Positions 57,115 through 60,891 of a stretch of DNA of 64,000 bases are shown here, in pieces. A program made the position numbers and the translations under genes. Numbering within the stretch: the first letter of the stretch is position 1; each line of letters begins with the position of its first letter. The notes beneath the pieces were generated by a model that saw only the letters and a program-made list of their open reading frames with translations, searched no databases and was not told where the DNA came from. Origin of the DNA: Nitrosomonas communis (GTDB lineage: Bacteria > Pseudomonadota > Gammaproteobacteria > Burkholderiales > Nitrosomonadaceae); NCBI RefSeq assembly GCF_024102715.1, contig NZ_JAGFJM010000089.1, positions 22,449 through 86,448 on the forward strand, written 5' to 3'.

Positions 57115-57249
57115 TCACTGTAACAATGCCTCAATCCGCTCCATGTCGGTATGGGTAACACCCCGCTGGCGTAATTCCTTAAAATCATCCAGTACCGCCT
57201 GTTTGAAGCTGCGGCCATCGCTAGTCATTTTTTCTTTATAGCGCAGGTA
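57115..57249 (-). pseudogene. displaced C-terminal segment of the STAND-TPR gene, one-base frameshift
   Basis: Read from 57249 the minus strand gives YLRYKEKMTSDGRSFKQAV then DDFKELRQRGVTHTDMERIEALLQ and a TGA (57115-57117). This is the ending typical of TPR proteins of this class (an AVLDDF...L...G..H.DM..IE.LL pattern). It is in the +1 frame relative to the upstream gene, whose own frame stops at 57236-57238 just after KAKAI. Deleting one of the two T at 57249-57250 (minus strand ATCTTACC) would join them exactly. So either a real frameshift mutation or a sequencing error. A free-standing 37-residue ORF from the ATG at 57228 is possible but unlikely. Confidence 0.75.
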
Positions 57250-59560
57250 AGATAGCCTTGGCCTTTTCATACTGATCAATCAATAGATACCCATGGGCCA
57301 GATTGGTATGGAGCGTTGCTTCTATCTGTTCATCTGTCTCGATTTCTAACCCCCGCTCACTCGCCTCGATGGCCTGTTCAGGTTGCCGATTGAATAATTC
57401 GTACCAGGCAAGGCGCAAGTAGGCGCCGGCCAGCGCTTGCCTGACTTCCGGACTATTTTCTTGTTTACCAAGCCACGCTACCTGGCGTTGAACAAGCTCG
57501 ACCGCCTCATTAAAACGATTCAGCTCAGCTAGCAATGACACCGGCGTGTCATAAAGCCAGCTTAGATCACGCTTCCAGATCACATTGCTGGGATCATGAA
57601 CAACTAAGGACTCGCTTATAGCTAATGCCTTTTGATAAAATGCCAACGCTTCCTCCAGCTTGCCTTGCGCGTTCAATACATCGCCAACCTTGTTAAACGA
57701 CACCGACACATCCCGCTGCCACTGCGTATTGCTCGGGTCATGCGCAGCTAGTTTCTGAGCGATAACCAAACTCTCCTGATAAGTTTTCTGCGCTTCCTCC
57801 AGCTTGCCTTGCGCGTTCAATACATTTCCCAGATTATCTAACGACACCGATAGATTGTGTTGCCACGGAAGATAATCTGGTTCAAGCCTCGAGATCTGCT
57901 CAATCAGAGAAAAAGACTGCTGATAGGCTTCTCTGGCTTTTTCCAACTTTCCCTGAGCAAATAACCGGTCTCCCTCGCTGCTATAGGAAGCAGCACGCTG
58001 GTTCAGCACCCTTGCTGATTGTCCCTCGATACCCAATTGTTGATAGTAATCATTTACCCGTTGCTGCACCATTTCAACGATATCCAGGCGACCGATCGGC
58101 GTAAGCCTGTCCCTTAACTCAAACACGAGGAAATTCAGTATGTCTTCTGCCGCCTCACGCGCAGCTTGTGCTTGCTGCCGCGCGCTATTGGCTTCCTTCT
58201 CGGCGGCATAGGCATCTTCTTTTGCCTGCCACTGCAAATAACCAAACACAGCCACAATCATGAGGGTGGCAACGCCACTATAGGCGACGAGGCGTTGTTT
58301 GCGGGTCAATTTCCACGGCCGGCTCTTGACGATAGGCCGGGCCAGGCTATCATGGCTCAGTTCATAAAAATAGCTCTCCAGACGCGGCTCCTTGCGCAAA
58401 AAACGCGCTTCAACCAGTGGAACCAGCGCCTGGCTATCAAGATGATATTCTTTCGCAATCTCGTTCTCTTGCAGCGGCAAGCGGAAGCCTTCCGCATTCA
58501 ACAACCCTTCTTCGCATAGCCGCTGCGCCTTCCGGCGATGATGTCTGGGTAATTTAGCGAGCGTTTGTTGATAGAAGTTCTCCCCAATCGCATCCAGCCG
58601 TTTTTCCCCACCGAGCAGTTTGCTCGTGATGCAAGCGATGGGCTGTCCCTTGGCAGCCTGTTGCGCCATTTGTTCCTCGATATCATGGCAAACCAGTTGT
58701 AGCTGGAATGGTTCGATGACGCCGGATTTACCTCGCAGGTAACGGATGATTTCCGCCAGAGCATCGTCCTCATAGCTAAATGGCGGCGTCATGAATCGAC
58801 TTCTAGTTGCAGCCGTTTGCGGGGAGGCAGCCGGTTGGCGAATAGCTTGCTCTGCCTGCGTATCGGACAATGGATTGAGTCGCACACGGTCATCGAAAAT
58901 CCCGGGAATATCGGCAGCCAGCTCTTGCAAGGCACCGAGAAAATCTTCACGCATGCTCAGGATTACGCGAATGTTAGGCGGCTGCTCGCTTAACAGCGCC
59001 GTAGAAGCAGCGCTGCCCTTCTCTGCTGCAGTTAACATTTGGCGTTTTTGCCTGACACTTTGCGGCAACACCCCGCGAAATAAATCACCGAGCTCGCGGG
59101 CTACCCCTGCACGCTCCTCAGCCTGTTTCAGCGTAAAAATCTCTTCGAACTGATCGAATACCAGCACGGGAGTAAGCAGCAGGTCACCTTGCCAGAACAT
59201 GGCTGTTTTGAAAAATTCCCAAAGCGTTTCACCTTCGCCTGGGGTGTAATCGATAGCCAATTTCCGGCTCGTCTCACGGGCTGCAGCCTGGATAATCTCG
59301 AGTAGCGCGCCTGGTATATTGAGACGAACGAGTAGAGGCAGCATGTGTTGCTCCTCGCGTAATTTCTGGAATACCCCTGCCTGGAGCAGGGACGTTTTAC
59401 CTACACCCGATTTACCAAACAATACCAGCAAGTGTGCTGCACAGATGCGATGGAACAGCAGTTCGATCTCTTCCTTGCGGCCATGAAACAATAAGCGGTC
59501 GTCGGGGTTATCCCTAAAGGAACGGGGACCAGGATAGCGATCGATGGATAGCTGATTCAT
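57236..59560 (-). CDS. STAND-type NTPase with membrane helix and TPR repeats (NLR-like)
   Basis: 774 residues in this frame. Start ATG 59560 overlaps the stop of the SIR2/TIR gene (ATGA). It opens YPGPRSF, as in many nSTAND proteins, with Walker A GKSGVGKT (49-56), Walker B VLVFDQFEE (132-140) and a sensor RVILSMREDFLGAL. A helical region follows to about residue 400, then a membrane helix (about 424-444), a coiled coil with RLDIVEMVQQRVNDYY, and TPR units (about 500-770) including NVLNAQGKLEEA and DVLNAQGKLEEA at 48-residue spacing. STAND proteins sense a ligand with their repeats and oligomerise. The true C-terminus is cut by a frameshift (see 57115-57249). Confidence 0.82.
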   Translation of the reverse strand: MNQLSIDRYPGPRSFRDNPDDRLLFHGRKEEIELLFHRICAAHLLVLFGKSGVGKTSLLQAGVFQKLREEQHMLPLLVRLNIPGALLEIIQAAARETSRKLAIDYTPGEGETLWEFFKTAMFWQGDLLLTPVLVFDQFEEIFTLKQAEERAGVARELGDLFRGVLPQSVRQKRQMLTAAEKGSAASTALLSEQPPNIRVILSMREDFLGALQELAADIPGIFDDRVRLNPLSDTQAEQAIRQPAASPQTAATRSRFMTPPFSYEDDALAEIIRYLRGKSGVIEPFQLQLVCHDIEEQMAQQAAKGQPIACITSKLLGGEKRLDAIGENFYQQTLAKLPRHHRRKAQRLCEEGLLNAEGFRLPLQENEIAKEYHLDSQALVPLVEARFLRKEPRLESYFYELSHDSLARPIVKSRPWKLTRKQRLVAYSGVATLMIVAVFGYLQWQAKEDAYAAEKEANSARQQAQAAREAAEDILNFLVFELRDRLTPIGRLDIVEMVQQRVNDYYQQLGIEGQSARVLNQRAASYSSEGDRLFAQGKLEKAREAYQQSFSLIEQISRLEPDYLPWQHNLSVSLDNLGNVLNAQGKLEEAQKTYQESLVIAQKLAAHDPSNTQWQRDVSVSFNKVGDVLNAQGKLEEALAFYQKALAISESLVVHDPSNVIWKRDLSWLYDTPVSLLAELNRFNEAVELVQRQVAWLGKQENSPEVRQALAGAYLRLAWYELFNRQPEQAIEASERGLEIETDEQIEATLHTNLAHGYLLIDQYEKAKAILPAL
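57647..57825 (-). repeat. 35-base perfect direct repeat in the TPR region
   Basis: The same 35 bases occur at 57647-57681 and 57791-57825, 144 bases (48 codons) apart. They encode the LNAQGKLEEA parts of neighbouring TPR units, showing a recent internal duplication or gene conversion. Confidence 0.85.
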
Positions 59561-60891
59561 GCGACGGCCCTTTTCTGACGTTGCTGCCAATCGGCTTTGA
59601 TTGCATCCGCTAATTGCTCAAAACCACCGAGCCCATTCAAAGGGATATGATGGAATTCATGTAGCTGCGGCAGAATGGCGTTCCCAGTCAGCGTAATCGG
59701 AACAATGAAGCGAAATTCGCTAGCAATCTTTTTCTGCCGCTCCAAGGCAGTTGTGATTTCCTTATAAAAATAACCTTCGACCTGCCTGATCATCGCCGGC
59801 GACTGGACGACAACGACATAATCGACGACTTGATTGATCACATGGATAAGCTGCCGATCCCAATTGTCACCGGCTCGCAGATTTTGCTTGTCCTGCCAGG
59901 GTTCAATGCCTGTTGCCAATAGTTGCTGGCCAAGTTGCTCCACTTGGTCGCGATCTTCACTGGCATAACACAAAAATACTTTCGGTAGGCTATCGGCTGA
60001 TTGTTGTTGAGTAGCGATTTGTGCTTTCGCCAACGGCGCATAGGCAGCGCGTAATTCTTTGGCAAATGCCAACCAGGAAAAATGCTCAAATTTGATTTTA
60101 TGCTGATTACTGTAGAACACGACTGTCTGAAAACAATCCGGGCGAGCAAAAAATTGCTTATCCTCGACCGCGAGCGATTGATTGCTATGATGATGCGCAT
60201 TCAATACATGGAGCAAGATACGGTGATGCCATGAGTGGAAGCCGAAGCCGACAAACAGAAAATTTTTATTCGGATCTGCAAACTGGCTACGGATAAATGG
60301 CGGCAATTCGGGGCTGCCTTTGATGATTTTGACTAAGAAATCTAAAAGATCATCTTCTGCCAAAACCAGAGATTCCAGGGATTCTGGATCAGCATCATCA
60401 TAGTAACCATACAAGCTATAAATATAAGGCTTTTCGGCAGTAGGTTGGATAGCAATCACCGGACGAGGACGCTGGTAGTTATAGTAGTCCCGGACAGGTT
60501 TCTTCCCTGCTTCAACGAGGGCATTGCTAAACAAATGATCGGGGGTGGTATTGATACATAGCGTAAACGGTAGCGCAGCCAAATCTCTATGAAAATCTGT
60601 CACCAAATTTTGATAAGCATCATAGAAATCCTTCACTTCGATTTCCAGGCCATAGCGATCAGAACGCTGCTTAAAAAGTTGAGCAACATGAGCCAGATCA
60701 TCCCGATTGACTAAATCTTTAGTCTCAGCAAGAACTTCATGACTGGCTAAACGGCGTGCGAGCAAAGTTGTCAGAGGTAAATGATCAGAATCTTCCGGAT
60801 CAAAACTGACCTGCGGTCCAAGTAGAAGAATGCAGTTACCACGTTTGATACTTTCGACCAATTTGCGCCACGGCAACTCAGGACTAGACAT
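59557..60891 (-). CDS. SIR2-like domain + TIR domain protein, putative NAD-targeting effector
   Basis: 444 residues, two domains. The N-terminal half (about 10-290) resembles the SIR2-like fold used in bacterial defence: GNCILLLGPQVS (18-29), INTTPDHLF (113-121) in the place of TTNYD, SLYGYYDDADPESLE (159 on) and LFVGFGFHSWHHR (about 213). The usual LHG is LYG, so the catalytic His seems lost (Y161). The C-terminal half is TIR: KVFLCYASEDRDQV from K304, IEPWQDKQNLRAGDNWDRQL, and GYFYKEITTALE with Glu378 as the probable NADase residue. GGGAG lies 9 bases before the ATG. Followed by the STAND-TPR gene with ATGA overlap. A role in phage defence is inferred. Confidence 0.78.
   Translation of the reverse strand: MSSPELPWRKLVESIKRGNCILLLGPQVSFDPEDSDHLPLTTLLARRLASHEVLAETKDLVNRDDLAHVAQLFKQRSDRYGLEIEVKDFYDAYQNLVTDFHRDLAALPFTLCINTTPDHLFSNALVEAGKKPVRDYYNYQRPRPVIAIQPTAEKPYIYSLYGYYDDADPESLESLVLAEDDLLDFLVKIIKGSPELPPFIRSQFADPNKNFLFVGFGFHSWHHRILLHVLNAHHHSNQSLAVEDKQFFARPDCFQTVVFYSNQHKIKFEHFSWLAFAKELRAAYAPLAKAQIATQQQSADSLPKVFLCYASEDRDQVEQLGQQLLATGIEPWQDKQNLRAGDNWDRQLIHVINQVVDYVVVVQSPAMIRQVEGYFYKEITTALERQKKIASEFRFIVPITLTGNAILPQLHEFHHIPLNGLGGFEQLADAIKADWQQRQKRAVA

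What the first reader, a model, noticed from the sequence alone, without database searches (positions are those of the whole stretch)
57115..60891. Two-gene NLR-like system: SIR2-like/TIR effector plus membrane-anchored STAND-TPR sensor
The genes overlap by ATGA and carry the three parts seen in bacterial immunity: a SIR2-like fold and a TIR domain (both linked to NAD depletion) in one protein, and a STAND NTPase with TPR repeats as the other. Known SIR2-STAND (Avs-like), TIR-STAND and bNACHT systems usually carry one effector fused to the sensor. Here two NAD-type domains are fused to each other and the sensor is separate and membrane-anchored. I do not recall this exact build as a described defence type, so it is a good candidate for an undescribed system. 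A defence role is inferred.
Basis: partly seen in the sequence, partly recalled or inferred. Interest (0 to 1): 0.85.

Follow-up and report, generated by a model that had tools for sequence, protein, structure and literature searches.

The report
Split bacterial immune receptor with pseudo-sirtuin
A pair of neighbouring genes in an ammonia-oxidising bacterium most likely forms a split immune receptor, in which a membrane-bound sensor switches on a separate NAD-destroying protein, and the same pair recurs in related bacteria with different sensors attached.

Summary
The pair is real. Gene 1 (59557-60891, -) matches SIR2_2 and TIR_2; gene 2 (57236-59560, -) is nSTAND1, one predicted transmembrane helix, then TPRs; they overlap by ATGA. 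The genome, by inference a Nitrosomonas, holds five such pairs. In the 85 held genomes of the genus, 32 genes in 23 genomes cover both halves of gene 1, and all 32 have an nSTAND1-type frame downstream. Pairs also occur in Paraburkholderia and a few other lineages.

Two corrections. The SIR2-like domain is probably a pseudoenzyme: HG histidine missing in 25 of 25 rows, TTNxD asparagine in 23 of 24, full GxGxS in 23 of 23; the TIR glutamate is kept in 23 of 23. So one NADase, not two. And the sensor is exchangeable (TPR, WD40, FGE, multi-helix) behind an effector-NTPase core that diverges together (r=0.989).

Best reading: a split, membrane-anchored NLR-like system whose pseudo-SIR2 domain couples a TIR NADase to the STAND switch. 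Defence is inferred; nothing was tested at the bench and no structure could be predicted.

The parts
59557..60891 (-). Gene 1: SIR2-like/TIR effector, 444 aa
   Evidence: Open frame with ATG start; dN/dS 0.09-0.14 against four relatives, with synonymous sites near saturation
60184..60549 (-). SIR2-like domain (residues 115-236), probable pseudoenzyme
   Evidence: SIR2_2 39.6 bits; motifs GPQVS / NTTPD / LYG in place of GxGxS / TTNxD / xHG
59623..59979 (-). TIR domain (residues 305-423) with the conserved glutamate E378
   Evidence: TIR_2 64 bits; Glu invariant in alignments
59557..59560 (-). ATGA start/stop overlap of the two genes
   Evidence: Sequence
57236..59560 (-). Gene 2: nSTAND1 - TM - TPR protein, 774 aa from its ATG
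58292..59536 (-). nSTAND1 NTPase domain; Walker A at 59393-59416
   Evidence: PF20703 102.5 bits; motifs
58235..58291 (-). Predicted transmembrane helix, preceded by a K/R-rich stretch
   Evidence: Kyte-Doolittle 1.99; 6 K/R in the 12 residues before, 1 in the 12 after
57240..57991 (-). TPR region, putative sensor
   Evidence: TPR_12, TPR_10, TPR_1 and others over their cut-offs
57115..57228 (-). Short frame resembling the C-terminal tail of relatives' gene 2, off frame here
   Evidence: Read by eye from the sequence against the L062 and L011 tails

Best explanation
The two genes form a split, membrane-anchored NLR-like switch. Protein 2 is the sensor-switch: an nSTAND1 NTPase on the cytoplasmic side, a membrane helix, and a C-terminal recognition region (TPRs here). 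Protein 1 is the executioner: an active TIR NADase fused to a SIR2 fold that has lost catalysis and serves as the docking or oligomerisation module linking TIR to the STAND protein. A trigger, most likely a phage or envelope-damage signal, makes protein 2 oligomerise with ATP; this clusters protein 1 through its pseudo-SIR2 domain, the TIR domains assemble and cleave NAD+, and the cell stops growing or dies. Shown here by sequence: domain order, pairing, co-divergence, motif loss and retention, purifying selection, exchangeable sensors, a recurrent predicted helix. Inferred: SIR2 inactivity, physical contact, NAD+ cleavage, trigger, topology and the defence outcome.
For: Pairing: 32 of 32 genes covering both halves in the 85 genus genomes have an nSTAND1-type frame downstream on the same strand (most partners recognised by a profile built here from nine of them, 13 named nSTAND1 by Pfam). 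Effector and NTPase distances correlate r=0.989 over 31 pairs, 0 of 5000 permutations as high (two incomplete pairs left out). SIR2 catalytic motifs lost, TIR Glu kept, while the SIR2-like half shows dN/dS 0.04-0.18 in nine comparisons and the TIR half 0.06-0.19 in the eight that could be computed, some near saturation. Two SIR2 proteins outside the pairs keep all three motifs: solo SIR2-TIR L081, with no STAND frame found in the 10 kb held, and a SIR2_2 protein beside a short-Argonaute-like frame in the same genome (motifs and neighbour judged by eye). nSTAND1 starts 8-54 residues into the partners where Pfam shows it (102 in L064, whose listed frame starts far upstream), so there is little room for a fused effector. 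Helix after the NTPase in 28 of 32. Sensor classes differ between sister pairs. Conflict-type neighbours (SLATT_1, TPR-S, CHAT) at L058, L069, L122.
Against: No structure was obtained and no interaction was modelled. The window locus is flanked by housekeeping genes, and so, by eye, are several others (for example L062, L066, L118); neighbours were not scanned systematically. Loss of HG alone does not prove inactivity: Avs5 with NG is active (PMC12931631, passages); one paralogue (L056) keeps the asparagine. Co-divergence is expected for any tightly linked pair inherited together. Four of 32 partners lack a clear helix, and the K/R asymmetry is weak in much of the WD40 clade. No PADLOC or NCBIfam model names either protein: PADLOC matches are partial TIR stretches, weak ThsA-type SIR2 matches and repeats. 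This copy's gene 2 has an off-frame C-terminus and may be impaired. Phage records and viral contigs gave no relative.
Confidence: 0.58

Rival explanations
1. The SIR2-like domain is a ligand reader: the TIR domain makes an ADP-ribose-type messenger and the degenerate SIR2 pocket binds it to give feedback on the complex, a one-chain variation on Thoeris logic.
For: Motif loss with retention of the fold by homology and purifying selection fits ligand binding without catalysis; weak ThsA matches.
Against: The GxGxS nucleotide-binding motif is itself degraded in 23 of 23 rows, which argues against NAD-like ligands; no SLOG or other known reader domain in the Pfam scan.
Confidence: 0.15
2. Both domains are active NADases, the SIR2-like part using non-canonical residues.
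For: Avs5 proteins with NG in place of HG are active (PMC12931631, passages).
Against: The catalytic asparagine, essential in Avs5 (same passages), is missing in 23 of 24 rows, the histidine in 25 of 25.
Confidence: 0.08
3. The pair is not an antiphage system but an envelope-stress or developmental cell-death or signalling switch.
For: Predicted membrane helix and multi-helix partners; five copies in one genome; housekeeping flanks at the window locus; no phage or viral-contig relatives.
Against: Patchy presence (23 of 85 genomes), copies in other lineages, broken copies, two relatives without the unit at the window site, and conflict-type neighbours at some copies.
Confidence: 0.15
4. This copy is a decaying remnant of such a system in this strain.
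For: Off-frame C-terminal tail of gene 2; broken copies elsewhere (effector in L063, both genes in L072, gene 2 split in L166).
Against: Gene 1 is full length and nSTAND1, helix and TPR matches are intact; the offset touches only the last tens of codons and could be an assembly error.
Confidence: 0.15

Closest known systems
Avs5 (SIR2-STAND antiviral proteins)
   Same: SIR2_2-type domain, STAND switch, C-terminal repeat sensor such as TPRs (PMC12931631, passages)
   Different: There SIR2 is the active effector fused to an nSTAND3 switch in one chain; here SIR2 is degenerate, fused to TIR, on another gene, with nSTAND1 and a predicted membrane helix
bDLD3-STAND-FGS plus bDLD3-TIR gene pairs (PMC8195603, passages)
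   Same: STAND sensor gene plus separate TIR gene in one neighbourhood; nSTAND1 named in that paper
   Different: There both proteins carry the same adaptor domain; here no adaptor is recognised on the STAND protein and a SIR2-like domain sits on the TIR side only
nSTAND1/NACHT proteins with C-lectin domains diversified by retroelements (PMC10907252, passages)
   Same: nSTAND1 with FGE/C-lectin sensor, as in L064 and L065; Nitrosomonas named there among organisms with several such retroelements
   Different: No template repeat found for these pairs in the stretches compared; effector here is a separate SIR2-like/TIR protein
Thoeris (ThsA SIR2-SLOG, ThsB TIR)
   Same: SIR2 and TIR in one pathway (PMC10022894, passages)
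   Different: Here fused in one protein, SIR2 degenerate, no SLOG match, STAND gene present
Conflict systems with catalytically inactive effector domains (PMC7159879, passages)
   Same: Inactive versions of enzymes used as non-catalytic parts are a stated theme there
   Different: Those are MoxR-vWA ternary systems; the word SIR2 does not occur in that text
FAM118B, vertebrate sirtuin similar to antiphage sirtuins
   Same: The family profile's SIR2-like part scores it best among SIR2 structures listed (E 9.6e-7); filament formation reported (PMC12700824, abstract and passages)
   Different: Vertebrate, NAD-processing; TIR and STAND fusion not known to me (recall)

Membership tests
nSTAND1 STAND NTPases (PF20703) | Profile match over the curated cut-off with Walker A and B | tested here: met
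   102.5 bits against 27.1; GKSGVGKT and VLVFDQFEE
TIR NADases | TIR domain with conserved catalytic glutamate | tested here: met
   TIR_2 64 bits; Glu in 23 of 23. Activity not tested
SIR2-type NADases (SIR2_2) | SIR2_2 profile match | tested here: met
   39.6 bits against 24.5; family profile finds FAM118B, ThsA and KomC. L066 had no SIR2_2 match, and L057 and L118 stayed under the cut-off
SIR2-type NADases (SIR2_2) | Catalytic motifs GxGxS, TTNxD, HG | tested here: not met
   Window has GPQVS, NTTPD, LYG
Avs / bNACHT single-chain antiviral STAND | Effector, STAND and sensor in one polypeptide | tested here: not met
   Two genes; nSTAND1 begins near the N-terminus of protein 2
Thoeris | SIR2-SLOG effector plus separate TIR signal maker | tested here: not met
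   No SLOG match in the Pfam scan; SIR2-like and TIR fused
Two-gene STAND/TIR conflict systems | Separate TIR effector and STAND genes, adjacent on one strand | tested here: met
   32 of 32 in the genus
Two-gene STAND/TIR conflict systems | Same adaptor domain on both proteins | tested here: inconclusive
   No shared Pfam domain found; undetected adaptors cannot be excluded without structures
Antiphage defence systems | Protects against phage | not testable with these tools
   Needs plaque assays

The most novel reading that the evidence does not exclude
A transmembrane, Toll-like-receptor-style bacterial immune receptor built from two genes: an outward-facing exchangeable sensor (TPR, WD40, C-lectin or multi-helix) across the inner membrane, a cytoplasmic STAND switch, and a cytoplasmic TIR NADase recruited by a sirtuin fold that evolution has turned from enzyme into adaptor. 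It would sense invaders at the envelope rather than phage proteins made in the cytoplasm.
Probability: 0.25. Interest if true: 0.85.

Novelty: new variant of a known kind. Interest (0 to 1): 0.6.

Why it matters
It adds a recurrent two-gene layout to bacterial NLR-like immunity in which the sensor is swapped while effector and switch stay together, and it offers a testable case of a sirtuin enzyme turned adaptor next to a TIR NADase. A human SIR2 protein is reported to act in the Toll-like receptor pathway (title seen in reference lists), so a bacterial protein that fuses the two folds could be a useful model. The predicted membrane helix makes the question of envelope sensing by bacterial NLR-like proteins directly testable.

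Tried and rejected
Phage and viral-contig relatives: none. Plasmids: P0001 gave only partial matches, in Nonomuraea and Haliscomenobacter; the L057 effector found one full-length relative, in Paraburkholderia caribensis. Alignment A1 was too variable for a pattern scan. A diversity-generating retroelement for the FGE-bearing pairs was looked for in G088 and G035: reverse transcriptase matches exist there, but no template repeat matching the sensor was recognised in the stretches compared, which reach about 1.5 kb from those matches; own contig C46 gave one weak 42-base repeat. PADLOC and NCBIfam name neither protein. Outside the genus the full effector is rare: in the class sample 4 of 369 genomes passed E 1e-25, two of them outside the genus (at most four candidates scored per genome); of the 59 of 398 genomes with a match in the phylum sample most listed matches cover only the TIR part. 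Not counted among the 32: two contig-edge pieces in G499, a SIR2-only remnant in G094 (L083), a fragment in G070, and the solo SIR2-TIR L081, which matches the effector profile at 53.9 bits but has no STAND frame beside it. Left out of the distance comparison: L011 and L170; L170 is also left out of the helix count. The tree warns of long branches (L080, L066, L117, L082, L122). An alignment for a second structure job (A5) was never used.
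Full report
What is there. On the minus strand, gene 1 (59557-60891) encodes 444 aa with a SIR2_2 match (residues 115-236) and a TIR_2 match (305-423); gene 2 starts inside the stop of gene 1 (ATGA, 59557-59560) and runs to 57236, encoding nSTAND1, a hydrophobic helix and TPRs. Walker A and a Walker B-like motif are present. The open frame of gene 2 stops at 57236; the region down to 57115 resembles the C-terminal tail of relatives L062 and L011 but in another frame. 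The closest named relatives are two contigs of one Nitrosomonas MAG and one contig titled uncultured beta proteobacterium isolate AOB, from which I infer that the window's genome (3.05 Mb, 144 contigs) is a Nitrosomonas.

It is a family and a pair. The genome holds five effectors of this kind (contigs C109, C102, C13, C122, C94), each followed by an nSTAND1 gene. In all 85 held genomes of the genus, 32 genes in 23 genomes cover both SIR2-like and TIR halves at E of 4.7e-58 or better; among them G095 is interrupted by stops, G051 C2 lacks its N-terminus and G519 shows one stop in the matched stretch. All 32 have an nSTAND1-type frame directly downstream on the same strand, in some cases split (L072, L166) or cut by a contig end (L063, L170, L171). 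Most partners were recognised by a profile built here from nine of them; Pfam names nSTAND1 in 12 of the 14 scanned, and for L057 in the genome search; L066's Pfam list was cut at 25 rows before it could show. Outside the genus the pair is in another genus of the family (L074), in two further members of the class (L117, and L172 with a split effector) and on a Paraburkholderia caribensis plasmid (L122). It is rare there: 2 non-genus genomes in a class sample of 369.

The SIR2-like domain has lost its motifs. Aligned on a solo SIR2-TIR protein that keeps GAGLS, TTNYD and IHG (L081), full GxGxS is absent in 23 of 23 rows (GxG kept in 2), the asparagine of TTNxD in 23 of 24 (kept in L056), the histidine of HG in 25 of 25, replaced by F, Y or L; the rows include three or four partial genes, and rows without that stretch are left out of each count. 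The TIR glutamate is present in 23 of 23. A second SIR2_2 protein in the same genome, by eye beside a short-Argonaute-like frame and an HsdS-like frame, keeps all three motifs. In Avs5 the asparagine is essential while NG can replace HG (PMC12931631, passages), so the missing asparagine is the stronger argument. The SIR2-like half is nevertheless constrained: dN/dS 0.04-0.18 in nine comparisons, similar to the TIR half (0.06-0.19 in the eight that could be computed); the lowest value and those for the window are near saturation. I conclude that it does a non-catalytic job, most simply docking or assembly.

The sensor is exchangeable, the core is not. Pfam describes the C-terminal regions of the 14 partners scanned as TPR (window, L062, L058), WD40 (L057, L066, L074, L117), FGE-sulfatase/C-lectin (L064, L065), or nothing (L055, L056, L080, L082, L122; the first three have 2, 6 and 5 predicted helices). 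Sister pairs differ: window and L062 carry TPRs, their sisters L055 and L056 only helices; L058 carries TPRs, its relatives L064 and L065 FGE. Effector and NTPase distances correlate at r=0.989 over 31 pairs (0 of 5000 permutations as high), SIR2 part 0.988, TIR part 0.972; linked inheritance alone would also give a high value. A helix after the NTPase is predicted in 28 of 32 partners (not in L057, L074, L161, L169). In the window copy 6 K/R precede and 1 follows it, which suggests N-in and C-out, but the asymmetry is small or absent in much of the WD40 clade and reversed at the best-scoring helix of L055 and L056.

Context. At the window site the neighbours are lspA and a DUF2007-like gene (named by eye). 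Among 30 lspA loci read, the window's own included, two relatives (L124, L127) have matches to these two genes only about 130 and 80 bases apart, so the two-gene unit of about 3.9 kb was gained here or lost there; in the other 27 the DUF2007-like gene was not found within the stretch held, which is short in some. Ten proteins chosen by eye were scanned: pairs sit beside SLATT_1/DUF4231 genes (L058, L069), TPR-S/MAP3K_TRAF_bd genes (L069, L122), a CHAT protein (L122), and a DUF4062-nSTAND1-FGE gene (L065); two neighbours (L065 8929-10182, L082 7793-9772) matched nothing. Several other copies look flanked by housekeeping genes by eye (L062, L066, L118). DUF4062 has been reported as a TIR-like antiphage NADase (PMC13174449, passages). 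This supports, but does not prove, a conflict role.

How it most likely works. A STAND switch without an effector of its own and a TIR effector without a recognised sensor of its own, encoded together in 32 of 32 cases in the genus and diverging together, imply that protein 2 activates protein 1. TIR NADases are commonly activated by clustering (recalled); the SIR2 fold, which forms filaments in FAM118B (PMC12700824, abstract and passages), is a plausible clustering or docking surface. The trigger is unknown; the anchored, diverse sensors point to the membrane. NAD+ loss and growth arrest would follow.

Compared with what is known. No PADLOC or NCBIfam model names either protein. Ten paper searches returned no description of the combination (open-access PMC only; I saw listings, and passages of seven papers). 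The nearest described layout is a STAND-FGS gene beside a TIR gene, coupled by a shared bDLD3 domain (PMC8195603, passages); inactive enzyme domains as parts of conflict systems are a theme of PMC7159879 (passages). SIR2_2 proteins bearing a TIR domain are mentioned in a legend of PMC12700824. I therefore call it a new variant of a known kind: a split STAND/TIR system with a pseudo-SIR2 link.

Limits. No structure or complex could be predicted. Transmembrane calls are Kyte-Doolittle only. Activity, interaction, topology and defence are inferences.

Noticed in passing
L186 529-2289 (-), own genome contig C65: SIR2_2 protein of 586 aa with intact motifs beside a short-Argonaute-like frame and an HsdS-like frame; looks like a SIR2-APAZ/short pAgo system in a restriction-modification locus (names by eye and recall; only SIR2_2 was scanned).
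   Followed up: partly
L079 (own genome contig C46) 1697-5061: Reverse transcriptase match next to an nSTAND1 fragment with an FGE-like end; possible diversity-generating retroelement target, but only a weak 42-base repeat was found.
   Followed up: partly
L081 6582-7928 (G047:C29): Solo SIR2-TIR fusion of 448 aa with intact SIR2 motifs and no STAND frame found in the 10 kb held; possibly a one-gene double NADase.
   Followed up: partly
L058 7072-10835 and L059 1005-7783: Further TIR plus nSTAND1 gene pairs of another kind in the same genome; one lies next to a SIR2-TIR pair and a SLATT gene.
   Followed up: no
L083 6817-7890 (G094:C28): SIR2-like frame that runs into a WD40-like tail (by eye), apparently a remnant in which the TIR and NTPase parts were deleted.
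   Followed up: no
L055 2-1575: Two frames resembling an IS21-type transposase pair directly downstream of the C102 pair (by eye, not scanned).
   Followed up: no
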